This document shows positions 37,162 to 55,561 of a stretch of DNA of 64,000 nucleotides, one piece after another (the first letter of the stretch is position 1; each line of letters opens with the position of its first letter). Under the pieces are notes generated by a model. It saw nothing but the letters and a program-made list of their open reading frames with translations, searched no databases and had not been told where the DNA came from. The stretch lies in contig CASFNG010000007.1 of the NCBI GenBank assembly GCA_949296075.1, forward strand, positions 62,001 to 126,000, written 5' to 3'. The stretch is from an uncultured Parabacteroides sp. GTDB lineage: Bacteria > Bacteroidota > Bacteroidia > Bacteroidales > Tannerellaceae. The position numbers and the translations under genes were made by a program.

Positions 37162-37206
37162 TTTTTAAGAAAAATAAAAAATCCCGGGAGAATGATCTCC
37201 CGGGAT
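37162..37206 (-). terminator. Terminator of the kinase/dynamin operon
   Basis: Perfect 11-bp stem ATCCCGGGAGA/TCTCCCGGGAT (37181-37206) with a 4-base loop; on the minus strand it is followed by a long T-rich tract. It lies 42 bases after the kinase stop codon. Confidence 0.88.
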
Positions 37207-37247
37207 CTGTTTCTTGCGATTACGCCCGGCAAAAGTTAGCCTCAGCC

Positions 37248-38867
37248 TCAATAATAAACGCCTATCTTCTTCAATATCCAATCAATCGCGCCACCGATCG
37301 CAAAAACGCAGATCATCACGGTCACCGTCCACGCCGTCCCAATATCCGGATCTACCGCCATCGCGATCACAATGCTGAGAACGATAGCGACCAACCAATG
37401 GATCACCAGTACCCCAATAGGACGGTAGGCGTCATCATCCGAGGAAGAAGAAGTATGCGTATGCTTCGTGGTGGTATGAGAAGAGGATGTGGTAGTCGTC
37501 GTGGTAGTGGAAGCCCGCACCGGAAACAGTATCATCTCCATACTTGACGCCCCCGGGGCGAAATCATACGTTTGGCTGACCTTACGATTCGCTCCCTCTC
37601 TCTCACGGAACTCATACGTATGCCTACCCGGAGGACAGCTTACCAACGGGCTCCCCACGCCATCCACGAAACCGATCTTCTCACCGTCCGCATAAACATC
37701 ACAGGGGACTCCTCCCGTCATAAACATAATAGTTGCCTGTTTATCGCTCGCCGAGGCCGAAGAGGAAGGGTCGGCATCTGAAGCCGTTCCCACGATTTTT
37801 CCCCACGCGATCTCCCGCCGGCAGGTCTCTCCCGCATAATAATATCCGTTGATCCAATGCACGGTCAGGCGATTAGCCATCTTATCCTTGAAATCCAGGT
37901 CGTGCTTCCCCGCCGGGATGGTCAGGGTACAGGAATTGCCGCGGGCCGTCGTCAGGAAGTTCCCGTCCATATAGACGTCATACAAGGCGCTCTCCTTCGA
38001 ACTCAACACCAAGGTGGCCTCATTTCTCCCCGTGGTTTCCATCTTTCTCCGGGTCTCTTCCTCTTCAGGCTGGGCAGATCGGGCACCGGTGTCCTGGAGC
38101 TCTTTCAGGAAAGTCTGGCAATCCGGCGTACGCCGTTCGAGGTTCTTACGGATCGCATGGCGGATCGCTGCTACCAATCGCTCATCGGGGATCTCATTCA
38201 GCGAGTCGCTTTCCATCTCAAGCGGGTCGTTACCGGTCATCAGGTTGTAAAGCGTCATGCCAAACGCATAGATGTCGGTACGGCCATCCACCTCGGCTGT
38301 CGATTTTATCTGCTCAGGACTCATGTACGAGATGGTCCCCATCTTCTGCCGGGTCTGCGTCTCCTGCTCGGTAGCCTCCTCATCTTCCCCGAAAAGTATT
38401 TTAGAGATCCCGAAATCCAGCAGCTTGATGATCCCACCCTTCACCAAGAAAAGGTTGGAAGGTTTAATATCCCGGTGAATAATATTACGGCTATGGGCTA
38501 CCGACAAGGCGTTCAATACCTGGGCACACATCCGTCGGATGGCGCCATAGTCGTGTATCGGTCCTTTTTTCTTCACATAATCCCGGAGATTCAACCCTTC
38601 CAGATATTCCATAATGATGACTAACTTTCCCTCAAACTCCCGACAATCATAGACATGACACACGTTCTCCACGTCGTCCAGCCTCATCATGATTTGCGCC
38701 TCTCGCTTAAAACGGGAGATCACTTCTGGATCTTTCGAGAACTTCTCTTTCAACACTTTGATGGCCACCCTCCGGTGGAGATTGTTTTCGGCGTAATAAA
38801 CCGTGGCCATTCCCCCCTCTCCTAACTGACGAAGGAGCTTATATCCATCGATAACTGTCCCTATCAT
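37248..38867 (-). CDS. Membrane-anchored Ser/Thr protein kinase with PEGA-like repeats
   Basis: 539 residues. A complete Hanks-type kinase domain (about residues 9-260): glycine loop GEGGMA (16-21), ATP lysine Lys37, HRDIKPSN (131-138), DFG (151-153), SPE (183-185) and DIYAFGMTL. It lacks the RD-dependent extras of a receptor and has no N-terminal helix. After a charged linker come two beta-rich PEGA-like repeats (YDVYMDGNFLTTARG and CDVYADGEKIGFVDG), a Thr/Ser-rich linker with a run of Thr codons, and two C-terminal membrane helices (about residues 482-531). So the kinase faces the cytoplasm and is tethered at its C-terminus. Last gene of the operon, just after the PP2C phosphatase that probably reverses its action. 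Confidence 0.93.
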   Translation of the reverse strand: MIGTVIDGYKLLRQLGEGGMATVYYAENNLHRRVAIKVLKEKFSKDPEVISRFKREAQIMMRLDDVENVCHVYDCREFEGKLVIIMEYLEGLNLRDYVKKKGPIHDYGAIRRMCAQVLNALSVAHSRNIIHRDIKPSNLFLVKGGIIKLLDFGISKILFGEDEEATEQETQTRQKMGTISYMSPEQIKSTAEVDGRTDIYAFGMTLYNLMTGNDPLEMESDSLNEIPDERLVAAIRHAIRKNLERRTPDCQTFLKELQDTGARSAQPEEEETRRKMETTGRNEATLVLSSKESALYDVYMDGNFLTTARGNSCTLTIPAGKHDLDFKDKMANRLTVHWINGYYYAGETCRREIAWGKIVGTASDADPSSSASASDKQATIMFMTGGVPCDVYADGEKIGFVDGVGSPLVSCPPGRHTYEFREREGANRKVSQTYDFAPGASSMEMILFPVRASTTTTTTTSSSHTTTKHTHTSSSSDDDAYRPIGVLVIHWLVAIVLSIVIAMAVDPDIGTAWTVTVMICVFAIGGAIDWILKKIGVYY

Positions 38868-38899
38868 AATAACGATCCCCTCTATATAACACGTTTCTA

Positions 38900-39889
38900 T
38901 CAGGATTCTTTTTTCTTTAATAGCAGATTAATGGCATGAAGGCATTTGTCCAACAGTCCCTTCAAGTACGATATTTTCTCCGGTTGTTCCAAGTTATCCT
39001 CCTCTTCCCTATGTGGATTTCCAAGCGCCTCCTCCACCTCTCTCATGACACGTGCCTGATGAATATCACGCCAATCCTCATCCGACAGGAACTCCTTCCC
39101 CTGCTGTTCCTCCAGACGGCAAGTATCATTTGCCCCTTCCACCTGTATCTGGATTAAATAGGCGGAGAAGTTATCCCGAGAACGCTCCCGGCATACCGCC
39201 ACGATCTGGCTCATTTTATCTTCCGCATCCCCTCCGGTATTAAAAAGATCCACAAGTTCATCGTCCGTCCAACCCTCGATCACGCCATCCGTGCAGAGGA
39301 GAAAATAATCGCCTGACCTTAAATCCGTCAATATAGCCGCCTCCGGCTTGATTTTATCTGATGGAACGGACAGAATCACCTGCGTAATGATGTTCTTCTT
39401 CGGATGCTTCCTGGCCTCTTGCTCCGTCAATATACCCGCGTCAACCCAACGTTGCACCAAGGAATGGTCTTTTGAGCGATAAACGATCCCCACGCCCGGC
39501 CGGAATTGATAGATCCGGCTGTCGCCTACATGAGCCACGAACACGGCCTCCTTCCCCAAACTCAATAAAGTCAGCGTCGTTCCCATGCCGTTTCCCTCGT
39601 CAGCATCTACGTCAAGCGCCCCCATCTTCCCGACAGCCACCTCGATAGCGGCCATCAGCTTACGGGTCGTATCATCCTGCTCCTCATTAATCATCCAATA
39701 ATGGGCGATAGCCTCAGAGGTAATGGCACTGGCCACCTCCCCCTTCTCATGGCCTCCCATTCCGTCACAGACCAAGAAAAGACGGGTGTCTCCCGCCGCC
39801 AATCCGGGACGAGGATAAATGGCATCTTCATTATTTTCCCGACGTCCGATCTCATTGCAATAAGAAGATGTATGTATCGAAACTACCAT
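38900..39889 (-). CDS. PP2C-family Ser/Thr phosphatase
   Basis: 329 residues. PPM fold with metal and phosphate residues: RRENNED (Glu21, Asp22), CDGMGGHEKG (Asp42, Gly43), GMGTTL, VGDSRIY (about 121-127), KDHS, CTDGVIEGW (Asp201) and SRDNFSAYL (Asp239, Asn240). All catalytic positions are present. A C-terminal extension of about 85 residues is charged and ends in a hydrophobic-basic segment (LKGLLDKCLHAINLLLKKK), perhaps for membrane association. It is placed between the FHA-bearing Hsp70 protein and the kinase (32 bases before it), a classic kinase-phosphatase-FHA set. Confidence 0.95.
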   Translation of the reverse strand: MVVSIHTSSYCNEIGRRENNEDAIYPRPGLAAGDTRLFLVCDGMGGHEKGEVASAITSEAIAHYWMINEEQDDTTRKLMAAIEVAVGKMGALDVDADEGNGMGTTLTLLSLGKEAVFVAHVGDSRIYQFRPGVGIVYRSKDHSLVQRWVDAGILTEQEARKHPKKNIITQVILSVPSDKIKPEAAILTDLRSGDYFLLCTDGVIEGWTDDELVDLFNTGGDAEDKMSQIVAVCRERSRDNFSAYLIQIQVEGANDTCRLEEQQGKEFLSDEDWRDIHQARVMREVEEALGNPHREEEDNLEQPEKISYLKGLLDKCLHAINLLLKKKES

Positions 39890-39901
39890 AAGGTTTTAGA
39901 T

Positions 39902-41362
39902 TTAAGCGTTCAACGTAAAAAGGTGATGCCCGGCACGAACCACGTCACCATTATTCAACAAAACCCGGCCCGAGACACGCCGGTCGTTCACGAAAGTACC
40001 ATTCGTGCTTCCCAGATCTTCCACAAAATACAGGTATCGGTTGGTCGGCTGGTCATACAGGATCACAAACTTTAAATGGGCCCGGCTAATCAATCGCTTC
40101 TCATCCGGCCCGAAATGGATCGGGATCTCCACGCTCGTCCCCGCGACCCAACGCCCCAAGACAAACTCGCCTTCCCGATCGAAGACAAAGGTACACAATT
40201 TATTTTGTTCCCCATACTCAATATAACCTAACCGGGGACGTCGAGGGGCGCTTTTCTTCTTGGCGAAAATCGCTCCGCCCAAAGCCACGGCAAATTGGGG
40301 ATCTATATCTCTCCCGTTCTCCGTGGTACGCCATACGATCGCGCCGTTAGACGCATTACGGGCATTAAGAAACGAACGTATTTTCTCACGGATTAACGGG
40401 ATAGCGCAGGATCCTCCGATCATCAGCACACGGGCGATCTGTTCCCAGCATACATCGTTTTTCCGCAACAGCAAGTCACAAGTCTCCAACGTCCGGTCGA
40501 TCATGCCGGAGATCATCGCCTCGAACTCCTTCCGGGTCAGCCTATATTCCTCTCCGGATGATCCGACAGGGAAAGATCCCTCTTCCTTATACGACAAGTA
40601 ACGCTTGATCGACTCGCATTTAGACTGGATCGCCAGCATCTGCCTCAACGACTCCGGATCGTCAAGACGCACATTCAGCTTGATCCCGCTGCGACGAAGA
40701 TAATCAAGCGTGATCTTCTCCGTGAAGAACTTCCCTCCCACGGGGATACCGACATTCCCATTGCCGATCAACCGGCAGCCATCAGGCGTATGCTTAATCA
40801 AGGCAGGATCGAAGGTACCTCCTCCAAGATCATAGACCAATGACACGCTCTCCGCCCGCTCTCCCTGTCCCGCGGAGGAGATATAGTCGTAATAGAGCGC
40901 GGCGGCCTGCGCCTCTCTCAAGAACTCCACCTTCCGGAAGCCGGCTGACTCTGCCGCCTCCCGCATGATAACCTGCCTGACATCCAAATCATTGTAGATG
41001 GCCGGAACAGTCAGCACCACCTGGTCGATCACCTCTTGCAGTTGCCTTTCAGCGGCAGCTTTCAAGGTTTTCAGTATCTCCGCGACGACCTCCTCATACG
41101 TTACGCCCAGCAATGGTATCGCCTGCCGCTTCATATCCAGCTTGAACTCGCGCAAGAAACGTACCGGGTCGTGAATATACATCTGATTTGCCTCATGACA
41201 CACCGAGATCCGCCCCCGTCCATCCACATAAGCTACCGTGGGAAACAGTTTGCTTCCCGCCGCGTCCGCCATCAGAGGGGTCACCAATTCCGGCTCCCCG
41301 CCGCGAATAATGACAGCGGCCGACGAGCTCGTCCCGAAATCTATACTCATCCAATTCGCCAT
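39902..41362 (-). CDS. Hsp70-type ATPase domain fused to an FHA domain
   Basis: 486 residues from ATG 41362; that start lies one base after the previous stop. Longer starts exist (ATG 41374) but overlap the dynamin gene. Residues 1-370 are an actin/Hsp70 nucleotide-binding domain: phosphate loop IDFGTSSS (7-14), VLTVPAIYND, phosphate loop 2 VYDLGGGTFD (176-185), adenosine motif MIGGS (314-318) and FAVALGGAIFA. The Hsp70 peptide-binding domain is missing; instead residues about 398-486 are an FHA phosphothreonine-binding domain with LGR, ISRAHL and GSTNGT. Predicted to bind a protein phosphorylated by the operon kinase and couple this to ATP hydrolysis. Neighbours: dynamin gene before, PP2C after (12 bases). 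Confidence 0.93.
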   Translation of the reverse strand: MANWMSIDFGTSSSAAVIIRGGEPELVTPLMADAAGSKLFPTVAYVDGRGRISVCHEANQMYIHDPVRFLREFKLDMKRQAIPLLGVTYEEVVAEILKTLKAAAERQLQEVIDQVVLTVPAIYNDLDVRQVIMREAAESAGFRKVEFLREAQAAALYYDYISSAGQGERAESVSLVYDLGGGTFDPALIKHTPDGCRLIGNGNVGIPVGGKFFTEKITLDYLRRSGIKLNVRLDDPESLRQMLAIQSKCESIKRYLSYKEEGSFPVGSSGEEYRLTRKEFEAMISGMIDRTLETCDLLLRKNDVCWEQIARVLMIGGSCAIPLIREKIRSFLNARNASNGAIVWRTTENGRDIDPQFAVALGGAIFAKKKSAPRRPRLGYIEYGEQNKLCTFVFDREGEFVLGRWVAGTSVEIPIHFGPDEKRLISRAHLKFVILYDQPTNRYLYFVEDLGSTNGTFVNDRRVSGRVLLNNGDVVRAGHHLFTLNA

Positions 41363-41363
41363 A

Positions 41364-42956
41364 TCACTTTCCATATAAAAAACGAGAAGCCGCGTCCAAT
41401 TTGCATTGCGCCGTCCGTATATCATTCAACAACAGCCGGTACGAATCGATAAACAGCTTCATGAACCTTGCCCGCGAGGGAAACAGTATCCCCACGGAAT
41501 TATAATTCCCCATCCAATACTCCAGCCGCTCCGACACCTTACTTACCATCTCCCCGACCGTCGCCCCCTCCGGCAACCCGATCCGGTTCAGGCACGAAGC
41601 GCCATACTCTCCGCATACACGCCTCAACTCCTCATACTCCTCTTCCTCCAGCTCCAGCTTACCCTCGTACATCTCGATCAGGAAATCCACCTTCTGGAAC
41701 TCCACATACAACACCTCCATCACCTCGTCGACTTTGCGAAGTACCTTGTTCAACAGCAAACGGTTCGCTATCGAGGCGGAATCCGACCGCCGGCAAAGGC
41801 GATCCCCCTCCTGATGACAACGAACCGACAGGGCATAAAGTGAGCTATAATTCTTTATCAAAGCCGCCCGCTCACCGAAATGCTCGCGAACCACCTTCAT
41901 GAACGCGTCGAAACCGCTCTTCTGGAGCAACATCTGCCTCATACCTTCCAACGAGGCATCCTCGCCATTCCGCCGCAAGTATTCCACGGCTAAATAAATT
42001 CCATAACGCCCATATTTAGCGAGCAACTCAGCGCGTCGCTCCTCGCTCACCTCCACATCCTCATAAACGGCCAAGAATCGCCTCTCAGACTTCAATAGCC
42101 TCTTGAACCGCTCCCCGTCCAACCGGCTTAACGCCTTGAATAAGCGCAGATCTTCCTCCGTCGCGCTACTGACGCACAACGCCAGCATCGCCGTGACCGG
42201 GTAGATGTCGAACAGGGTATTACGGACAACTTCCTGCGAACGCAGCCCGTCGATCACCTGATGGGCCTCCCGCAAAGGATCCAGCTCCGGATCAGATGCC
42301 CAGATCTCGTCTATCTTCGACATCACCCCCATCGCATTGATCGGGAGAAAGCCATTCCCCACGCCTTGGCGAAAATCCTCGATGATCCCCAGCGTATCGG
42401 CGTTGATGCTCTTGGCGAATAGCATGATAACCGCGTCAGGACGCACTTGTCGTAAGAAATCGAGCGTGTTCCGCGAGTCGGTGCCATAGAAAGAGTCCAA
42501 GCCCGGGGTATCGATGATATTGATCTGCTTCAGGATCTCCTGATCGGAAGTGACCTCTATATAGGAGACCGTATCACGCAGTTGCTCATTATCATCCCGC
42601 TTCCGGTTCGCCCATTCGGCCCACTCTTTCCGAGAGATCCGCTCCGAAGTCCCCTTTTTATAATGCACCACCACATCACCCTCCGGATCGCCATATTTCA
42701 GCCAACTGACGTTCCAAGTCTCTTCCATCGCTCCGGTACGCACCACCTCCGGCTGCCCGAGGATAGCGTTCACCAACGTCGATTTAGAAGAGCTGATCTT
42801 ACCGACAATGGCTAACTGCATCGGGGAGGCGAGTCGCTCCGGTATCCGTGCGAAAGCCTGGCGCAAATCCTCGAAGCAACTCCCGGATAAATCCTCTTGC
42901 GCCTCCCGCGCCAGCGCGGTAATCCTCGCCAATATATTGAACTCGCCATCCATCAT
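41364..42956 (-). CDS. Dynamin-like GTPase, second of a pair
   Basis: 530 residues. GTPase motifs: G1 GKISSSKST (about residues 52-60), G3 IDTPGLDS, G4 MSKID. The switch I threonine region is ETWNVSW. The rest is helical and charged, with a long coiled-coil-like part (VEFQKVDFLIEMYEGKLELEEEEYEELRR) but no long hydrophobic paddle. Its start overlaps the end of the first dynamin gene by 4 bases (coupled translation), as in other bacterial dynamins that work as unequal pairs in which one subunit holds the membrane and the other assists. Confidence 0.88.
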   Translation of the reverse strand: MMDGEFNILARITALAREAQEDLSGSCFEDLRQAFARIPERLASPMQLAIVGKISSSKSTLVNAILGQPEVVRTGAMEETWNVSWLKYGDPEGDVVVHYKKGTSERISRKEWAEWANRKRDDNEQLRDTVSYIEVTSDQEILKQINIIDTPGLDSFYGTDSRNTLDFLRQVRPDAVIMLFAKSINADTLGIIEDFRQGVGNGFLPINAMGVMSKIDEIWASDPELDPLREAHQVIDGLRSQEVVRNTLFDIYPVTAMLALCVSSATEEDLRLFKALSRLDGERFKRLLKSERRFLAVYEDVEVSEERRAELLAKYGRYGIYLAVEYLRRNGEDASLEGMRQMLLQKSGFDAFMKVVREHFGERAALIKNYSSLYALSVRCHQEGDRLCRRSDSASIANRLLLNKVLRKVDEVMEVLYVEFQKVDFLIEMYEGKLELEEEEYEELRRVCGEYGASCLNRIGLPEGATVGEMVSKVSERLEYWMGNYNSVGILFPSRARFMKLFIDSYRLLLNDIRTAQCKLDAASRFLYGK

Positions 42957-44860
42957 CCGACTGTCGCCTCATGGTTCATACCTGCGTCACCCTTATCCGA
43001 TGCTTCCGCCCGGGAATCCCGGGAAAAAGATCCCGACCTTTCCGCGGAAACCTTACCAACATTCGCGAAAGGGTTGGTCAAGAAAACCTTCAATACCCCC
43101 AAGATCTGTTCCACCGGCTTCAACTCATCTTCCAACAGCTTCGTCCTCAGCTGCTTCTGTTGCATCGTCTCTTGCTTCAGACGGTTCAAGTCGCTCAACG
43201 TACTCTCCATCTGATGAATCAAATCCTGCGTACCTTGCTGCATCGCCGCGATCAACGACGTATTAAATTCCTCGAACCGGTTATTGATATAATTGCGCAA
43301 ATGATTCACGGCAATCGAGATCTGCGGCGACAACTTACCCGCGAGAAACGCCCTCTGCTCGCTTGAGCTTGCCTCCGAGACCGTCTTGCCTATATAGCCC
43401 AACGCGGAGGCCGCCCCAATCAGCAACGCCGCCCCTCCTACGATCCCTCCCGTAAACAGGGAAGCGACAACACCAGCAGCCAATCCGCCGATGCCCAAGC
43501 CCGGCATCACGTGGCGAGCCACGTTACACACCTTGCTCCCGACCGACCGCTCCACCGGCGACAAGTCGGTATGGATCTCGAACCGGAATCCTTTCGCCGA
43601 GGTATGCATCGTGTTCATTCCAAGGAGCTGGATCACCTGATCCTCCGCCGCGTCGATCATCAAGTCCAGCTCAGCGGAAATACTACCTATGCCATCATTC
43701 AGCCGACGCAGCAACCAAGTCGAGTCTTTTGCCTCCGGAGAAGAGAGCAAAGCCTGCAAACGATCGGTAGAGAGCAATACACTCTCCTCGGAAAGGCGTG
43801 TCTCCACTTGGCTACGGGCTTGGCGGATCGTAGAGGCGATCTTCTGCCGATAGTTCGAGTTCGGGTTAGAAAGACGCTCTTTCTGGTCGCGCAGCTCGGT
43901 CAACTCCTGCTCAAGCTTCCCGATCAAGTGCGGATCCGGCACCTTGATTTGCCCCATTTTCAATTTGATAGGCTCTAAGATTCCACGAAAGACGTCGATC
44001 AAGTAATCGCGCAACTCCAGCAACAGCCCCCTCCGGACATTCTCAATAAGATTATCGATCTCCTTCTCAACCGCGGCGAAATTCGATTCCTCCAAGCTCA
44101 TCTCATCCCCGCTATCCAAATAATCCTGCATCAACATGGAAGAAACAGGGATCACGGTCAGGGACTGTCGCTCCTGAAGTTTGTTTCGCACATCAGCGAC
44201 CCATTCCTGCACCTTCCGCTCGCTGGATAAGCTATCCGCCTTGTTCACCAGCACAATATGTTGGCGGGAGTAAGGAAGTATCTTCTTTTTAAAGAAAGTG
44301 ATCTCGGCGCCGGTCAGAGGCTCGCCGGTGTCTGTCACGAAGATCGCCGCATCCGCTTTCGGAAGAAAGTAAGTGGTCAGGAAAGCATGCCGGGGATCCA
44401 GTCCTCCCACGCCCGGCGTATCAAACAGGGCTATTCCCTTTTTCAGTTTCTCATTCGGAAGCTCGATCACCAGCAAGACGGTATTATCGATCTCCTCCGC
44501 CGAGCCTTTCGCGTAACGCTCTATGTCGTCCCGGCTCGACAACTCCTCGGTTTTCAGGTCATTCAACTCCCCATATTGCCGGACAAGGCGAAACTTCTCG
44601 CCATACCTTATCAACGAGACAGCGGAGGTCGCTATACCTACGTCCACCGGGCATACCTGTTCGCCCAAGAAGGCGTTGATGAAAGAGGATTTACCACGCT
44701 TGAACTCCCCGCAAACCAGCACGGATACCTCCTGCCGGTCGATCCGTTCCCAATATGTATCGATCACGCCAAGCTCACGCGTCTTCCCCATTCCGCGAAG
44801 CACACCTTGGGCTTGTTCGCATATCTTGCGGAGCTGAGCCGTTTCCATTGGTATATTCAT
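42953..44860 (-). CDS. Dynamin-like GTPase with membrane-insertion paddle
   Basis: 635 residues. G1 GEFKRGKSSF (about 51-60), G2 region GIATSAV, G3 FDTPGVGG, G4 VNKADS. The stalk helices are interrupted at about residues 450-495 by a glycine-rich hydrophobic segment (GLGIGGLAAGVVASLFTGG and the following GAALLIGAASALGYIG), which resembles the paddle that inserts in lipid in cyanobacterial BDLP and relatives. Long coiled coil after it, then a low-complexity tail. Likely tubulates or fuses membrane with its smaller partner encoded directly downstream. Predicted to be cytoplasmic and peripheral to the inner membrane. Confidence 0.9.
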   Translation of the reverse strand: MNIPMETAQLRKICEQAQGVLRGMGKTRELGVIDTYWERIDRQEVSVLVCGEFKRGKSSFINAFLGEQVCPVDVGIATSAVSLIRYGEKFRLVRQYGELNDLKTEELSSRDDIERYAKGSAEEIDNTVLLVIELPNEKLKKGIALFDTPGVGGLDPRHAFLTTYFLPKADAAIFVTDTGEPLTGAEITFFKKKILPYSRQHIVLVNKADSLSSERKVQEWVADVRNKLQERQSLTVIPVSSMLMQDYLDSGDEMSLEESNFAAVEKEIDNLIENVRRGLLLELRDYLIDVFRGILEPIKLKMGQIKVPDPHLIGKLEQELTELRDQKERLSNPNSNYRQKIASTIRQARSQVETRLSEESVLLSTDRLQALLSSPEAKDSTWLLRRLNDGIGSISAELDLMIDAAEDQVIQLLGMNTMHTSAKGFRFEIHTDLSPVERSVGSKVCNVARHVMPGLGIGGLAAGVVASLFTGGIVGGAALLIGAASALGYIGKTVSEASSSEQRAFLAGKLSPQISIAVNHLRNYINNRFEEFNTSLIAAMQQGTQDLIHQMESTLSDLNRLKQETMQQKQLRTKLLEDELKPVEQILGVLKVFLTNPFANVGKVSAERSGSFSRDSRAEASDKGDAGMNHEATVG

Positions 44861-44905
44861 GTCATTCTATTTAAGGTTCTAATGATTAAATGAAGCGAAA
44901 GCCGG

Positions 44906-46006
44906 TCAACCCTGCGGGAATCCCATTCCCGGATCGGCATTCCAGCCCATATCCATGCCATAAGCGTCCACCGGGTTGATGCCAAAAGCTTGGCAAAACT
45001 CCATATAATGGGCCTGTTGCCCATAGAAATCAGCCTTTCGAAGGTCGCCCATCGCCTCGAAGTTCGAGGCTTGCGACTGGAAATAGTCGCTCAAGTAATC
45101 CGCCGTAGCATCTCCATGCACAAAATCGGCTATCCCGGAATGGCTAAACATGTCGTTCTGCATATATGTACTCGCGTAATTGGATATGAATTGCGAGGGA
45201 TCTACCTGGGTCATGAAATCATATTGTCCCTCATCCAACAGCCGGGCCAGATCATCTGTCCGGGCGTAATCCAAATAAGCCTGTGTGAGGGAACTTATGG
45301 GATGAGCGCCTCGCGAAGGATCCCAGCCTTGCATATCGGGCAAAGCCTGGGATACGTCGTGGAAAAGCTGGAAATCCGCGTAACTATTGCCGGCCACATC
45401 CGCCAAATGCATGGCGGGCTGCCCATTGGCGGTCTGCACGCTCGCGAACTCCGCCGGAGCTATGTCCGTAGAAACCATGAAGCAACTCGAATCTTTCCAA
45501 GCATCCATAAACTGATCCAACGGATACCTTTTACAGAGGTCGCCCATTCCCGGATCGGTCAGAAGCACCATTGGATTCGAGGGATCCGAATTGTCAACGC
45601 CAGCCACGATCAAGGCATGATCGGCGCCCGTATCACCGTGGCGCAGGTCTTCCCACCATTCTTTCAGATCGGCCTTCAAGCCTTGATCCCACAGTTCTCC
45701 GGAATCCACACCAACGATGACCTTATGTCCTTGGGAGAGCTCGCTGACCAGATCGAACACCGTCGCGTCCACCTTGCCCGTGACCGGTATCCCACCCTCT
45801 TGCAAGAGGATACCTACGTCGCTCATCCTGGTGCCGTTGCCGGTATATAGCCCATGCTCCGCCGACCATGCCACGAGATCGTCCTCCGTGACCTCGATCC
45901 CGAAATCTTGCAAGATCAACTGCTGCGACTTGATAGCGCACGTATCTGAATATTGTTGCTCAATCGGGTTAACCTCTCCATAAACTCCTTGCTTACCCAT
46001 TTCCAT
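44906..46006 (-). CDS. C39-like cysteine peptidase domain protein
   Basis: 366 residues, no signal peptide. The N-terminal about 180 residues are a C39-type papain-fold: QQYSDTCAIKSQQLIL with catalytic Cys23 and the preceding Gln oxyanion residue, His130 in GADHALIVAGV and Asp151 in LTDPGMG. Residues about 200-366 are acidic and aromatic, with no domain that I recognise (LTQAYLDYARTDDLARLLDE, YGQQAHYMEFCQAFG, GMDMGWNADPGMGFPQG). First gene of the six-gene operon, 45 bases before the large dynamin. It may be an effector or a processing enzyme; no peptide with a double-glycine leader is visible nearby. The catalytic set makes an active peptidase plausible; substrate unknown. Confidence 0.82.
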   Translation of the reverse strand: MEMGKQGVYGEVNPIEQQYSDTCAIKSQQLILQDFGIEVTEDDLVAWSAEHGLYTGNGTRMSDVGILLQEGGIPVTGKVDATVFDLVSELSQGHKVIVGVDSGELWDQGLKADLKEWWEDLRHGDTGADHALIVAGVDNSDPSNPMVLLTDPGMGDLCKRYPLDQFMDAWKDSSCFMVSTDIAPAEFASVQTANGQPAMHLADVAGNSYADFQLFHDVSQALPDMQGWDPSRGAHPISSLTQAYLDYARTDDLARLLDEGQYDFMTQVDPSQFISNYASTYMQNDMFSHSGIADFVHGDATADYLSDYFQSQASNFEAMGDLRKADFYGQQAHYMEFCQAFGINPVDAYGMDMGWNADPGMGFPQG

Positions 46007-46033
46007 ATCGTATTATCCTTAAGGTTTACTCCT

Positions 46034-46041
46034 CCAAAGAT
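46034..46041 (-). promoter_or_regulatory. Predicted -7 box of the kinase/dynamin operon
   Basis: Minus-strand TATCTTTG (46041-46034) matches TAnnTTTG exactly, 28 bases before the first gene. The upstream TTG is about 24 bases away, a little far. Together with the terminator at 37162-37206 it defines a transcription unit of about 8.8 kb. Confidence 0.6.
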
Positions 46042-46077
46042 ATACAAATTCCGGGATATGGGGATACAAGATGCCTT

Positions 46078-47886
46078 TCAATATTTCCCCTGAAAATAAT
46101 CGGATCGGATCAGCTGGTCGGATATGGTCCATGCCTCACGTGCCCGCCTCACGCCTTGGGCTCCGGAGGAAAGCGTGTCGCCTACCGCGACAAGGGCGGG
46201 ATCCACGGCGAATCCCAGACCGGAATCGCCTGCCACGCTATGGCCGAGACCTGTCCAGCCATAATGATCTAACGAAAGGAGATTCAATAAAGTAGGATAA
46301 ATATCCACCTGCCCCATCACCGGTTCGTACCGGCGACTGACGGGCGAGTTCAAGACGATGAGCGGCACAAACCGCCCCTCGGAGATATACCGCCGGCCCA
46401 TCTCCGTGGAGCGAAGCGGCTTCCGGTCCGAAGCCAGCCCCTCATGGTCGCCCGTGATCACGATCATCGCGTCGCGGAAACGCTCGTCCGCGCGCATGGC
46501 ACGCACGAAATCACCCACGGCCTGATCCGTATAATGCGCCATCGTCAGATAATCAGCCATTCGCCGGGGGACAGCGGACGAGAACGAGATCGTCCGCAAC
46601 CGCTCGGGCAGCACGAACGGACTATGCCCGGAGTAAGTGATGAACACCATGAGCCGGTGATCTGACCGGTCGAAATCGCCCTCCCGTAACTTGCGTGCGC
46701 ACTGGGTGAAGAAAGAACGGTCGCCCAATCGCTCGCGGGAGCCTACTCGTTCATCGAGCACGAAATCCTTCTTCCACACCAAGCTGTCATAACCGAAAGC
46801 CTTCGCCACCTCCCGCTGGTTCCACGTAATATCCTTGTCCACCGTCACCACGCCGGTGAAAGCATCCGGGTGGGCCTCCTTGAAAGCCTTGACAAGGGAG
46901 GGATAACAGGAATGGGGATAACGGATGCTATACGCCCCGTCGTTGATAGGCAGCAGTCCGGTATTAAACAGCAGCTGGGAGTCGATCGAGCGGCCGCCCT
47001 TCACTTGCGAGAGCACCCGGGGGGCAAAGAATACATCCTTCTCCCGCAGGAACGCGTTCAGGTTGGGCGTGATCTCCTTCCCCTCCACCTCGATGCCCAA
47101 AGGCCAGCTCTCGAATGATTCCAGCAGGAGGTAGAAGCAGTTGTCCCTACCCGGCGAATAGGGCAGCGCCACATGAGGCGACCTCGCCGCGAGCCACGCC
47201 TCCACCTTCCCCGCCTCGGCAGGCTCATGGCAGGAACGCTCCGCCTCGTATTGGCAGAACAGGGAGCCGAAAAGGGTAAACACAGGTACCCGCACCGTGA
47301 AATAATGGGCGTTCTGCATATCCTTATCCTCCCGCATGATTCCCCCATACGAATGGAAAAAACAACCGGTCACCAAACAACTCAGCAGGGTGAGGAGGAG
47401 ATGGTTCCTCCCCCTCGGGCGGGCCATGCCAATCCGGCTCACCCACACGCAAGCGATCACGGTGGTCAACGGGAAAAGCGTGTCGATCCAGCGGAGAGAG
47501 TCGCGTACGCTGGAGGTAAAATCAGTCAAGTTGCCAACCAAACGATAGCTATCCAACGGGATAGCCGTACCATAAGTACGGAAATACATCAGGTTCGACA
47601 CCAAGAATGCGTCGGTCAATATCCCCAATACGGCGACAGTCCATGCCACGCGCCCCGCGGTGCGGAGAAACGGCAAGAGCAACGGAAGGCTCAAGACGAG
47701 ACATACCGCGATCTTGTTCACATAGCCCTGCACGAACGAGAAAGAGGAAAATGTCGTGCTATATGACCAGATCAAGTCAAAAAGAATAAACTTCGAGAAC
47801 AACATCCCCAGCGCAATCCACTGGTTATCAGACAAACGCACGTATCCCCCCATACGACGCCCCACACACTTTATTACATTCATCAC
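46078..47886 (-). CDS. LTA synthase-like membrane sulfatase/phosphatase-superfamily protein
   Basis: 602 residues: about five N-terminal membrane helices (up to residue 195), then an extracytoplasmic alkaline-phosphatase-superfamily domain as in LtaS and OpgB-type phosphoglycerol transferases. Metal and active-site motifs: LLLESFESWPLG, ITPNLNAFL, KGGRSIDSQLLF (Ser in place of the usual Thr nucleophile region), TYSGHSPF, ITGDHEGL and GQVDIYPTLLNLL. Bacteroidetes have no lipoteichoic acid, so it probably transfers or removes a phospho-group on lipid or glycan. It ends 36 bases upstream of the C39 operon promoter, same strand; whether functionally linked is unknown. Confidence 0.88.
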   Translation of the reverse strand: MMNVIKCVGRRMGGYVRLSDNQWIALGMLFSKFILFDLIWSYSTTFSSFSFVQGYVNKIAVCLVLSLPLLLPFLRTAGRVAWTVAVLGILTDAFLVSNLMYFRTYGTAIPLDSYRLVGNLTDFTSSVRDSLRWIDTLFPLTTVIACVWVSRIGMARPRGRNHLLLTLLSCLVTGCFFHSYGGIMREDKDMQNAHYFTVRVPVFTLFGSLFCQYEAERSCHEPAEAGKVEAWLAARSPHVALPYSPGRDNCFYLLLESFESWPLGIEVEGKEITPNLNAFLREKDVFFAPRVLSQVKGGRSIDSQLLFNTGLLPINDGAYSIRYPHSCYPSLVKAFKEAHPDAFTGVVTVDKDITWNQREVAKAFGYDSLVWKKDFVLDERVGSRERLGDRSFFTQCARKLREGDFDRSDHRLMVFITYSGHSPFVLPERLRTISFSSAVPRRMADYLTMAHYTDQAVGDFVRAMRADERFRDAMIVITGDHEGLASDRKPLRSTEMGRRYISEGRFVPLIVLNSPVSRRYEPVMGQVDIYPTLLNLLSLDHYGWTGLGHSVAGDSGLGFAVDPALVAVGDTLSSGAQGVRRAREAWTISDQLIRSDYFQGKY

Positions 47887-53058: not shown

Positions 53059-53096
53059 CAGTGTCCGATTCATAAGGGAATCGAACCTTGGATTCT

Positions 53097-54533
53097 ATGG
53101 CAAAATCTCTTTCCCGGTTCTTCATCCGCAAGCAGGACGAGAAGAACGAAATCGCAACTCTTTTCTTTAGGGTGCAGAATAAGAAACACAAAGTCGATAC
53201 GCTCTTTTCCTCTCAGATCCGTGTGAATGTTGCGGAGTGGAAAGAGGCTTTGTCGTGTCCTGAAAAATGGATGCGACATCAAAGGGCGAACTTTAATTTA
53301 CACGACTCACTCAATAGGATTGAACTGGTAGTAAAATCGGAAGTCGAAGGCATGTCTTTCGACAAGTCGCATGTTGAGGCCGAAATCCTCGCTATCGCCA
53401 ATCCGAAAAAGGCAGAAGCCATAATGAAAGCGAAGCGTGAAGAGGAGGAACGGCAACGCGAGGAAGAACGCATAAAGGAAGAGCAGGAACGTCTGATAAA
53501 GGAAGGCATCGATGCTGAACGCGCCAAAATATGGAATTTCATAGACCGATTTTGCAATGAAATCAAGAGCGGTGCCAGGCTTAATGGTCATGATAGATAT
53601 GCGCCCGGCACTGTGAAGGCATGGAATAGCTTTAGGAAGCTCTATGACTTGTTTGACAGAAAGCATCGCAACACATGGTATGACGTAGACCGTGCGTTCG
53701 TCACCAAATTCCTGAATTTTATGGAGAAGAAAGATTATATGGTGACTGCGCAGAATAAATATCTGGTTGATCTCCGTGCAATTATCAGCTACGCTTATGC
53801 AGACGGAATCCACAACAATGACCGTGCCCTGCAATATTTCGCAAAAAAGAAAATTGAAGAGAAAGACAAGGCTATCGAAATCTACCTTACCGAGGCAGAG
53901 CTTCAGGCATTGTATGAAATGCCACTGTCAGGCAAGCAGGAAGAGGTGCGCGATATATTTCTTGTCGGGTGCTACACTTGTCAGCGCGTGAGCGATTACA
54001 ACGACATCGACAAGGATTGTTTCACCACTACTGCCAAAGGAACACCGGTAATACGCCTCATTCAGAAGAAAACCCGCAACGAGGTAAAGATTCCTATAAT
54101 GAATCCCAACCTAAAGGCTATATGCGAAAAATACGACTACAATCTCCCTTATGTTGTTGACGTGATACTCAACCGCTACATAAAGGAGATTCTAAAGGAG
54201 CTGTCCGGTAAAGTGCCCGACTTAGCCAGGATGGTAGTAACCAAGCTTACTCAAAAGCAGAAGAAACTGGTGGAGGACGGCAAGCTCGTTGTCGAGCACA
54301 ACGAAAAGGGAGAGGTGATAATGCCCCGCTATAAGTGCGTGACTACCCACACAGCCCGCCGCAGTGGAATAACCAACATGTACCTCACCCACAAATACTC
54401 CATAGTCCAGATGATGCACGTCAGCGGCCACAAAACGCAAAAGACCTTCATGGACTACATCAAACTCTCCTCCGATGAAATTGCCGACGAGATTAACGCT
54501 ATCGCCAATGGCAGTAAAACGGAAGTATTTTAA
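53097..54533 (+). CDS. Tyrosine recombinase / integrase of the island
   Basis: 478 residues from ATG 53097 (TTG 53088 is an alternative). N-terminal Arm DNA-binding-like domain (FFIRKQDEKNEIATLFFRVQ), a long charged coiled region with Glu/Arg repeats (about residues 105-145), a SAM-like core-binding domain (APGTVKAWNSFRKLYDLF) and the catalytic domain: first Arg in CYTCQRVSDY, HTARRSG with His and second Arg, the GHKTQKTF stretch and the nucleophile Tyr in FMDYIKLS. All catalytic residues present, so it should be active. The charged insertion before the SAM-like domain is longer than in most Bacteroidales integrases. Confidence 0.95.
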   Translation: MAKSLSRFFIRKQDEKNEIATLFFRVQNKKHKVDTLFSSQIRVNVAEWKEALSCPEKWMRHQRANFNLHDSLNRIELVVKSEVEGMSFDKSHVEAEILAIANPKKAEAIMKAKREEEERQREEERIKEEQERLIKEGIDAERAKIWNFIDRFCNEIKSGARLNGHDRYAPGTVKAWNSFRKLYDLFDRKHRNTWYDVDRAFVTKFLNFMEKKDYMVTAQNKYLVDLRAIISYAYADGIHNNDRALQYFAKKKIEEKDKAIEIYLTEAELQALYEMPLSGKQEEVRDIFLVGCYTCQRVSDYNDIDKDCFTTTAKGTPVIRLIQKKTRNEVKIPIMNPNLKAICEKYDYNLPYVVDVILNRYIKEILKELSGKVPDLARMVVTKLTQKQKKLVEDGKLVVEHNEKGEVIMPRYKCVTTHTARRSGITNMYLTHKYSIVQMMHVSGHKTQKTFMDYIKLSSDEIADEINAIANGSKTEVF

Positions 54534-54586
54534 CTATTATTACTCAGAAACAGCTACAAATCAAAATATAAATTGTAATTTTGAAT

Positions 54587-55561
54587 ATGGAAACAAATAA
54601 TTCACAGCTCGTAATCTATCAGGCACCCGACGGAAATATGTCGATTGATGTGACAGTTCAGAATGATACCGTATGGTTGAGCCAAGGGCAGATGGCCGAA
54701 CTCTTTGACAAAGATCAGTCAGTTATTGCCCGCCACATCTCTAATGTTTTCAAGGAAGGCGAGCTGGAGAAAGAGAGTAATATGCAAATTTTGCATAATA
54801 CTCTGTCGAAGTACAAGCCGACTCAAGTTTACAGCCTTGATGTTATTATCTCTGTTGGCTATCGCGTTAAATCCAAACGTGGCACTCAATTCCGCATTTG
54901 GGCGAATAAGATATTGAAGCAGTATCTTCTTCAAGGCTATGCTATAAACGAACGCATAGCTGCGCAGAAATATGACGAACTGAGTCAGTTGGTAAAAGTG
55001 CTTGGCCGCACAATCCAGAATCAAGAAAGGCTTACGGAGGATAGCCGTTCATTGCTTGATGTTGTCGTCGATTACACATACGCCCTCGACACCCTTGACC
55101 GCTACGACTATCAGGAACTGAAGATTGAGGACACCACCGGTAGAGAGTCGTTTCATGCCACCTACGAAAACGCCATGGAAGTCATCCGCGAGTTACATGA
55201 GAAATTTGGAGGTAGCACATTGTTCGGCAACGAAAAAGATGATTCCTTCAAAAGCTCCATCGGTCAGATTTACCAGACTTTCGGAGGCGTTGACCTCTAT
55301 CCCTCAGTGGAGGAGAAAGCCGCCATGCTCCTGTATCTCGTTACCAAAAACCACTCGTTCAGTGACGGCAACAAACGCATTGCCGCCACACTGTTCCTGT
55401 GGTTCCTCAACGGCAATGGCATTCTCTACAACGAAGACGGCACAAAGCGCATTGCCGACAACACCCTCGTCGCCCTTACCCTTATGATAGCAGAAAGCCG
55501 CACTGAGGAAAAGGACACAATGGTTAAAGTCATCGTCAACCTCATCAACAAGAATAACTGA
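54587..55561 (+). CDS. RhuM-Fic/Doc fusion protein
   Basis: 324 residues from ATG 54587. Residues about 5-135 are a RhuM-type domain (IYQAPDGNMSIDVTVQNDTV, WLSQGQMAELFDKDQSVIARHI, VYSLDVIISVGYRVKSKRGTQFRIWAN cut over two motifs); the C-terminal half is Fic/Doc-like with HSFSDGNKR (residues 256-264) and flanking LYLVTKNH/IAATLFLWFLNG. The motif has HxFxDGNKR like Doc (kinase) and Fic (AMP transferase) proteins, so it is likely an active nucleotide or phosphate transferase. No small antitoxin is adjacent. A perfect -7 box TAATTTTG (54576-54583) sits almost at the start codon. Confidence 0.85.
   Translation: METNNSQLVIYQAPDGNMSIDVTVQNDTVWLSQGQMAELFDKDQSVIARHISNVFKEGELEKESNMQILHNTLSKYKPTQVYSLDVIISVGYRVKSKRGTQFRIWANKILKQYLLQGYAINERIAAQKYDELSQLVKVLGRTIQNQERLTEDSRSLLDVVVDYTYALDTLDRYDYQELKIEDTTGRESFHATYENAMEVIRELHEKFGGSTLFGNEKDDSFKSSIGQIYQTFGGVDLYPSVEEKAAMLLYLVTKNHSFSDGNKRIAATLFLWFLNGNGILYNEDGTKRIADNTLVALTLMIAESRTEEKDTMVKVIVNLINKNN

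What the first reader, a model, noticed from the sequence alone, without database searches (positions are those of the whole stretch)
37248..46041. Six-gene operon joining dynamin pair, Hsp70-FHA, PP2C, Ser/Thr kinase and a C39-like peptidase
All six genes are on one strand, with gaps of 45, -4, 1, 12 and 32 bases, one -7 box in front and one terminator behind, so they look like a single transcription unit. Kinase, PP2C phosphatase and FHA domain form a phospho-threonine switch, as in type VI secretion (PpkA/PppA/Fha), but no secretion gene is present; the outputs here are membrane-remodelling GTPases and a peptidase. I know of no described bacterial system with this set. Hypothesis: phosphorylation of a dynamin or the peptidase recruits the Hsp70-FHA ATPase, which assembles or disassembles a dynamin coat, perhaps in envelope repair, phage defence or vesicle formation.
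Basis: partly seen in the sequence, partly recalled or inferred. Interest (0 to 1): 0.88.

Follow-up and report, generated by a model that had tools for sequence, protein, structure and literature searches.

The report
Kinase-controlled bacterial dynamin–Hsp70 operon
A bacterium carries six neighbouring genes that join a pair of membrane-bending dynamin-like proteins to a cut-down Hsp70, a protease-like protein and a kinase/phosphatase switch; a four-part core of this set turns up in three bacterial phyla, so it looks like an undescribed membrane-stress or anti-invader machine rather than a chance cluster.

Summary
Observation confirmed: six co-directional ORFs, gaps as stated, one upstream -7 box, one strong terminator. 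Catalytic motifs are present, but the second dynamin's P-loop reads GKISSSKS.

The six-gene set is rare: found again only in a Culturomica MAG; no close second-dynamin relative in 122 other family or 392 other order genomes (weak hits aside). The core is wider: dynamin 1, dynamin 2 and an Hsp70 without substrate-binding domain, often with the C39-like gene, recur on Anabaena, Rhodococcus and Gordonia plasmids. All 27 plasmids (of 72,556) matching C39 also match dynamin 2, 2.8-9.3 kb away. Dynamin and Hsp70 trees largely agree (long branches); the C39 tree does not.

In seven other Bacteroidota C39 loci a sigma-factor gene usually precedes C39 (6 of 7) and C39 has an anti-sigma-like N-terminus (6 of 7). 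Downstream genes vary: dynamins/Hsp70/double-GTPases, TIR + nSTAND1, M48. The window lacks that switch and has kinase/PP2C/FHA.

Best reading: a phospho-controlled variant of a GTPase/Hsp70 conflict or envelope-stress system; FHA replaces the Hsp70 substrate-binding domain and ties kinase state to dynamin assembly at the inner membrane. Function untested; no structure model obtained.

The parts
44906..46006 (-). C39-like (papain-fold family) protein, 366 aa, no TM segment; Q17, C23, H130, D151; no anti-sigma-like N-terminus
42953..44860 (-). DYN1: dynamin-like GTPase, 635 aa, canonical G1/G3/G4, hydrophobic stretch 451-491 (paddle-like, by hydropathy)
41364..42956 (-). DYN2: dynamin-like partner, 530 aa, no hydrophobic stretch, P-loop GKISSSKS (Gly to Ser), G3 and G4 kept
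39902..41362 (-). Hsp70 nucleotide-binding domain without substrate-binding domain, fused to a C-terminal FHA domain (ORF opens at 41425)
38900..39889 (-). PP2C-type Ser/Thr phosphatase, metal-binding motifs present
37248..38867 (-). Ser/Thr kinase (VAIK, HRD, DFG present), middle region, Thr/Ser-rich linker, two C-terminal TM-like segments
46035..46042 (-). -7 box TATCTTTG of a Bacteroidota-type promoter
   Evidence: consensus recalled
37179..37208 (-). intrinsic terminator

Best explanation
A phospho-controlled variant of a widespread, undescribed dynamin-pair/Hsp70/C39 system acting at the inner membrane. Shown by sequence: the six genes look like one unit; dyn1, dyn2 and Hsp70 without substrate-binding domain recur together in three phyla; kinase, PP2C, FHA, Hsp70 ATPase, DYN1 GTPase and C39 motifs are present. 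Inferred: DYN1 (with a paddle-like hydrophobic stretch) and DYN2 form a heterotypic membrane-bound assembly of the Cj-DLP1/2 kind. The membrane-anchored kinase senses stress or invasion and phosphorylates operon proteins or its own Thr/Ser-rich linker. The Hsp70 uses its FHA domain, in place of a substrate-binding domain, to dock on phospho-Thr and uses ATP to assemble, activate or strip the dynamin coat; PP2C resets it. The C39 protein, in relatives coupled to a sigma factor and an anti-sigma-like segment, is a control component (a processing switch) kept here without its sigma partner. Purpose: envelope rescue or anti-invader response.
For: Culturomica locus (Bacteroidota) with all six families and the four core genes in the same order. 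Core on Anabaena, Rhodococcus and Gordonia plasmids (Gordonia without C39). 27 of 27 C39-matching plasmids also match DYN2, 2.8-9.3 kb apart. dyn2 rows are one side of a 100/100 branch (10 rows); dyn1 rows a clade at 85/92 (8 rows), 11 other dynamins outside. The 14 operon Hsp70s fall outside a clade of 14 DnaK-type controls. Anabaena groups with window + Culturomica in dyn2 (99/98), Hsp70 (92/87) and, weakly, dyn1 (84/43). Hydrophobic stretch in DYN1 and not DYN2 in window, Culturomica, R. opacus and G217. DYN1 resembles IniA (1e-21); the DYN2 profile resembles Cj-DLP (1e-18) and IniA (4e-15). Sigma gene directly upstream in 6 of 7 other Bacteroidota C39 loci opened, anti-sigma-like N-terminus in 6 of 7, effectors varying and including TIR + nSTAND1. 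DynA delays phage lysis (PMC8844932, abstract).
Against: No experiment; no phosphosite or interaction evidence. FHA, kinase and PP2C were seen with the core only in window and Culturomica, where kinase and PP2C stand in swapped order with extra genes between. The Culturomica kinase has zinc ribbons instead of TM segments and a Thr-rich linker, its HRD is HLD, and its FHA Asn is His in the alignment. The C39 tree does not group Anabaena with window + Culturomica (0% of bootstraps). The tree tool flags long-branch joins in both other trees, among them Anabaena with the window Hsp70, and uneven letter make-up; the dyn1 clade is not among its starred branches. Anabaena dyn1 lacks the hydrophobic stretch at the threshold used. 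The anti-sigma reading rests on sub-threshold zf-HC2 matches (E about 0.01) in 2 of 4 such C39 proteins scanned and on motifs read by eye. No clear defence island; operon GC equals the left flank. No relative in viral contigs (C39 profile, DYN2) or phages (C39).
Confidence: 0.5

Rival explanations
1. General envelope-stress or membrane-repair operon like iniBAC or DynA, with no conflict role: the dynamin pair seals or reshapes damaged membrane, and the kinase system senses envelope damage.
For: DYN1's best PDB match is IniA. The iniBAC promoter responds to cell-wall drugs (PMC5760070, abstract start) and a dnaK-like gene lies downstream of iniR in M. smegmatis (passage). The upstream neighbour matches Pfam Sulfatase; that such genes serve the envelope is recalled.
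Against: Patchy distribution, plasmid location in other phyla, and double-GTPases or TIR/nSTAND1 beside related C39 genes point to a conflict setting.
Confidence: 0.28
2. Type VI secretion-style threonine phosphorylation switch (PpkA/PppA/Fha) regulating a remote secretion system.
For: Kinase, PP2C and FHA are encoded together.
Against: No TssC/VipB match in the 83.75%-complete genome, while the control run finds it in E. coli. The FHA is fused to Hsp70 and sits with dynamins whose relatives occur without the kinase.
Confidence: 0.03
3. Chance or selfish clustering: a dynamin-Hsp70-C39 cassette and an unrelated kinase/PP2C pair happen to be adjacent.
For: Only two genomes showed the six together in the searches made, and the kinase and PP2C are in different order in the second.
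Against: The FHA fused to the Hsp70 ties a phospho-reader to the core. Culturomica has the same families with kinase and PP2C diverged (34% and 45%), so the link is older than these lineages or was formed twice.
Confidence: 0.12

Closest known systems
GTPase-centric conflict systems (DO-GTPase/GAP1; Kaur et al. 2020, PMC7159879, passages seen)
   Same: GTPases with Hsp70 (some without peptide-binding domain) in one theme and active kinase + PP2C in another; membrane link. The related G217 and Anabaena loci each carry two DO-GTPase-like genes, one above and one below the Pfam cut-off.
   Different: The window has dynamins and no DO-GTPase or GAP1 match; it has C39 and an Hsp70-FHA fusion. The paper's text has no 'dynamin', 'C39' or 'sigma factor' (counts of 0).
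Paired bacterial dynamin-like proteins: Cj-DLP1/2 (PMC6104087, passages)
   Same: Side-by-side gene pair; profile similarity to 5owv.
   Different: Its operon is described with an HcpA-like beta-lactamase; 'Hsp70' occurs once, in the reference list, and 'peptidase', 'kinase', 'phosphatase', 'FHA' not at all.
Mycobacterial iniBAC / IniA (PMC5760070, passages; PMC6715688, listing only)
   Same: Dynamin pair; a dnaK-like gene lies downstream of iniR in M. smegmatis.
   Different: Regulator IniR has an AAA+ ATPase domain; 'peptidase', 'kinase', 'phosphatase' and 'FHA' do not occur in the text.
LeoABC dynamins (PADLOC LeoA and LeoBC models; PMC4159319, listing only)
   Same: DYN1 matches LeoA (4e-19) and LeoBC (5e-15).
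   Different: No Hsp70, C39 or phospho-switch known there (recalled).
EACC2-caspase + ECF sigma systems (PMC8195603, passages)
   Same: Same logic as the sigma/C39 loci: a constant peptidase plus a sigma factor with variable partners.
   Different: Caspase fold, not C39; 'C39' and 'dynamin' occur 0 times.

Membership tests
T6SS threonine phosphorylation pathway (PpkA/PppA/Fha) | kinase, PP2C and FHA encoded together | tested here: met
T6SS threonine phosphorylation pathway (PpkA/PppA/Fha) | secretion apparatus (TssC/VipB) in the genome | tested here: not met
   0 of 1 genome; genome 83.75% complete
DO-GTPase/GAP1 conflict systems | DO-GTPase gene | tested here: not met
   no such Pfam match in the six proteins (E up to 0.001)
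DO-GTPase/GAP1 conflict systems | GAP1 protein | tested here: not met
   no such Pfam match in the six proteins
DO-GTPase/GAP1 conflict systems | Hsp70 lacking peptide-binding domain (one theme) | tested here: met
   HSP70 profile matched only to 371/599
Bacterial dynamin-like protein pairs | two adjacent dynamin genes, GTP-binding motifs | tested here: met
   DYN2 G1 altered (GKISSSKS)
Bacterial dynamin-like protein pairs | membrane-inserting region in at least one partner | tested here: inconclusive
   hydrophobic stretch 451-491 in DYN1 by hydropathy only
Bacterial dynamin-like protein pairs | heterotypic complex, nucleotide-driven membrane remodelling | not testable with these tools
   needs biochemistry
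DnaK/Hsp70 chaperone | substrate-binding domain | tested here: not met
   FHA in its place; outside the clade of DnaK-type controls in the tree
C39 peptidase family | catalytic Cys, His and Asp in register | tested here: met
   C and H 13 of 13, D 12 of 13, Gln 10 of 13 rows; the window has all four
C39 peptidase family | Pfam gathering score of Peptidase_C39_2 | tested here: not met
   window 23.1 bits against 24; relatives L038, L069, L070, L104 above it, L039 below, L041 no match
iniBAC | iniB and iniR genes with the dynamin pair | not tested
   no IniB or IniR query was run

The most novel reading that the evidence does not exclude
A new class of cross-phylum bacterial immune or envelope-rescue systems: a sigma factor and a C39-like protease-fold sensor switch on variable NTP-driven effectors, often a dynamin pair driven by an Hsp70 without substrate-binding domain and with a swappable C-terminal adaptor (FHA, TM + C-terminal region, FGE-sulfatase, WF tail). 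The window is a version in which the transcriptional switch was replaced by a Ser/Thr phosphorylation switch that makes the Hsp70 read phospho-threonine.
Probability: 0.35. Interest if true: 0.86.

Novelty: new variant of a known kind. Interest (0 to 1): 0.68.

Why it matters
Regulators of bacterial dynamins are little known (recalled). A conserved partnership with an Hsp70 lacking its substrate-binding domain, here wired by FHA to a kinase and phosphatase, would give a concrete test of how bacterial dynamin coats are assembled or stripped, much as Hsc70 strips clathrin coats (PMC4436892, abstract start in the listing). It would also extend prokaryotic conflict systems to dynamin-based effectors and to a sigma/C39 control module that also occurs beside TIR-STAND genes.

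Tried and rejected
Hsp70 as a phylum query was uninformative: 197 of 198 genomes matched; the rows listed (a capped list) are mostly partial matches in long frames of DnaK length. The single genome-contig scan used one sequence's exact short peptides, so it is insensitive; it gave one locus. Viral contigs gave no relative for the C39 profile or DYN2; phage records none for C39. The Anabaena Hsp70 in plasmids drew 144 records, the 60 listed being mostly DnaK/HscA-type. An empty-site comparison in the genus was dropped: in five regions opened around sulfatase homologues (42-47% by tblastn) no other flanking gene was found, and the prismane homologues (66-69%, 8 other genomes) were not opened. 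A cognate sigma gene in the own genome: one weak match only (E 1.6e-5). Not opened: weak C39 profile matches G117, G592, G635; G729; G470; 6 of 15 other DYN2-profile genomes. Structure models: never obtained. One genome search was left unused.

Rejected: a T6SS role; clustering by chance; C39 simply co-inherited with the core (its tree does not show it).
Full report
Observation. All six genes are open ORFs on the minus strand with relatives elsewhere, with gaps of 45, -4, 1, 12 and 32 bases (the 1 needs the Hsp70 start at 41362). One -7 box lies 28 bases upstream of the first gene and a strong terminator lies behind the last. Pfam gives kinase, PP2C, Hsp70 + FHA, two Dynamin_N, and C39 just below the cut-off. 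Motifs: kinase VAIK/HRD/DFG; PP2C metal-binding motifs; Hsp70 phosphate loops; FHA GR and SRxH; C39 Q17-C23, H130, D151; DYN1 canonical G1/G3/G4. DYN2 has GKISSSKS in place of GxxxxGKS, shared only with Culturomica among the five dyn2 proteins checked. DYN1 has a hydrophobic stretch at 451-491 and DYN2 none; the kinase ends in two TM-like segments behind a Thr/Ser-rich linker. In PADLOC the kinase matches PD-T4-6 (1e-67) and mad6 models, which may be no more than a shared kinase domain, and DYN1 matches LeoA (4e-19).

How rare is the six-gene set? In the family, 0 of 122 other genomes had a close DYN2; 3 had matches at E of 1e-4 to 8e-4, of which 2 were opened and hold dynamins without tblastn matches to Hsp70 or C39. 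In the order, 0 of 392 others had a close DYN2; G729 had a partial match at 4e-16, not opened. The genome-contig scan, an insensitive one, found one relative in a Culturomica MAG (Bacteroidales). That locus has sigma, C39, dyn1, dyn2, Hsp70-FHA in order, then zinc-ribbon genes, kinase, a BACON-like protein (by eye), PP2C, a small anti-sigma-like ORF and M48. Kinase and PP2C thus stand in the opposite order to the window. Identities to the window proteins are 44-51% for the four core proteins, 45% for PP2C and 34% for the kinase domain.

The core is cross-phylum. DYN2 matches 35 of 72,556 plasmid records and C39 matches 27; all 27 also carry DYN2, 2.8-9.3 kb away. Twelve of the 27 are Prescottella, near-copies by their table rows, so independent cases are fewer. 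Seven records were opened. Anabaena pANA01 has Hsp70, an unknown, two DO-GTPase-like genes, an unknown similar to the first, C39, an unknown, dyn1, dyn2. Rhodococcus opacus and sp. WAY2 have dyn1-dyn2-Hsp70-hyp-C39-hyp-sigma. R. qingshengii has C39-hyp-sigma and, further on, dyn1-hyp-dyn2-Hsp70-Hsp70. Gordonia KTR9 and 135 have dyn1-dyn2-Hsp70 without C39. Lysinibacillus has three dynamins only. Of the 8 records with DYN2 and no C39 match, Nocardia, Nonomuraea, two Gordonia and R. pyridinivorans were not opened.

In the phylum sample the DYN2 profile matches 16 of 395 genomes, the window's included. I opened 9 of the 15 others. The three genomes with the best scores (G005, G639, G098; best E 6e-40 or lower) have Hsp70-like genes beside the dynamin; in the other six (E 2e-23 to 3e-18) tblastn found dynamins but no Hsp70 or C39.

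Trees. In a 29-row dynamin tree the ten dyn2 proteins are split off at 100/100 and the eight dyn1 proteins form a clade at 85/92, with 11 other dynamins outside. In a 28-row Hsp70 tree 14 DnaK-type controls (so called from their length; no call names them) form one clade (100/99) and the 14 operon Hsp70s fall outside it. Window + Culturomica + Anabaena group in dyn2 (99/98), Hsp70 (92/87) and weakly in dyn1 (84/43). The tool warns of long branches meeting in both trees (Anabaena with the window Hsp70; G217 with G005 in dyn1) and of uneven letter make-up. A 13-row C39 tree does not recover the group (0% of bootstraps). So the dynamin pair and the Hsp70 look co-inherited, with this caution, while the C39 may be exchanged.

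What the C39 gene does elsewhere. The C39 protein or profile led to seven other Bacteroidota loci that I opened: G217, G227, G345, G316, G303 (all 5 matches among 197 other genomes of the order) and G005, G098 (2 of 5 matches among 394 other genomes of the phylum; the other three are weak and were not opened). A sigma-factor gene lies directly upstream in 6 of 7, overlapping in 5 (not G005), and an anti-sigma-like N-terminus precedes the C39 domain in 6 of 7. Five of the six sigma proteins were scanned: two pass a Sigma70 cut-off (G316, G345), three match sigma families below it. zf-HC2 matches are sub-threshold, in 2 of 4 of these C39 proteins scanned; the rest of the anti-sigma reading is by eye. 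Downstream: G217 dynamin, Hsp70, two DO-GTPase-like, an unknown, dynamin; G227 three dynamins; G098 dyn1 at a contig end; G005 dyn1, Hsp70, a 140-aa ORF, dyn2, Hsp70-FGE-sulfatase; G316 TIR, nSTAND1, WD40/ankyrin; G303 an M48-like gene with zinc ribbon (by eye); G345 runs into a contig end. Thus dynamins follow in 4 of 7. The window C39 lacks the anti-sigma-like part, no sigma gene lies beside it, and its genome holds only one weak match to these sigma factors.

Interpretation. The recurrent parts elsewhere are a sigma/C39 control module and NTP-driven effectors, often the trio dyn1, dyn2 and Hsp70. The Hsp70s share the ATPase domain and differ behind it: FHA (window, Culturomica), TM and a C-terminal region (R. 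opacus), FGE-sulfatase (one of two in G005), a tail ending in WF (Anabaena), none (G217). In the window the adaptor is an FHA domain and the operon adds a kinase and phosphatase. The simplest mechanism is that the kinase makes the phospho-threonine the FHA reads, so the Hsp70 acts on the dynamin assembly (or on the kinase linker) only when the kinase is on. This step is inference. Whether the purpose is phage defence or envelope rescue is open; the DynA abstract reports both membrane surveillance and phage protection (PMC8844932).

Known literature. DO-GTPase/GAP1 systems (PMC7159879, passages) are the nearest described kind and share Hsp70 and kinase/PP2C themes, but that text has no dynamin, C39 or sigma factor. 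No paper describing this set was seen in the listings (several capped); the library lacks most subscription papers and preprints, so this is not proof of absence.

Limits. No structure model. The genome is 83.75% complete and unnamed; that it is a member of Bacteroidota rests on its relatives and promoter type.

Noticed in passing
L041:9170-17362 (G316): Sigma factor + zf-HC2-like/C39-like protein (its Asp position reads F in the alignment) followed by TIR, nSTAND1 and WD40/ankyrin genes: the same control module in front of immune-type effectors.
   Followed up: partly
L069:2225-8309 (Anabaena pANA01): Four of ten checked proteins of the locus (Hsp70, one DO-GTPase-like, two similar unknowns) end in D/N/E-WF, a shared C-terminal tail of unknown meaning.
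   Followed up: no
L103:5938-7956; L107:683-4783: Hsp70 without substrate-binding domain fused to an FGE-sulfatase domain in G005; two Hsp70-like ORFs with similar-looking C-termini sit side by side in G639 (domain read by eye there).
   Followed up: partly
window 41364-42956: DYN2 P-loop GKISSSKS (Gly to Ser) shared with Culturomica but canonical in the other three dyn2 proteins checked; possibly a GTP-binding partner with impaired hydrolysis.
   Followed up: partly
window 53088-55561: Phage-integrase-like gene and a RhuM-Fic gene, in a stretch where GC falls from about 0.53-0.55 to about 0.43 (from about 48 kb on).
   Followed up: no
window 46078-47886: Sulfatase-family gene directly upstream on the same strand, 71 bases away; seven genus relatives have a homologue at 45-49%.
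   Followed up: partly
L042:9166-11283 (G303): Sigma + C39-like + M48-like peptidase with zinc ribbon (by eye); an M48 gene also lies in the Culturomica locus, so it may be another recurrent partner.
   Followed up: no
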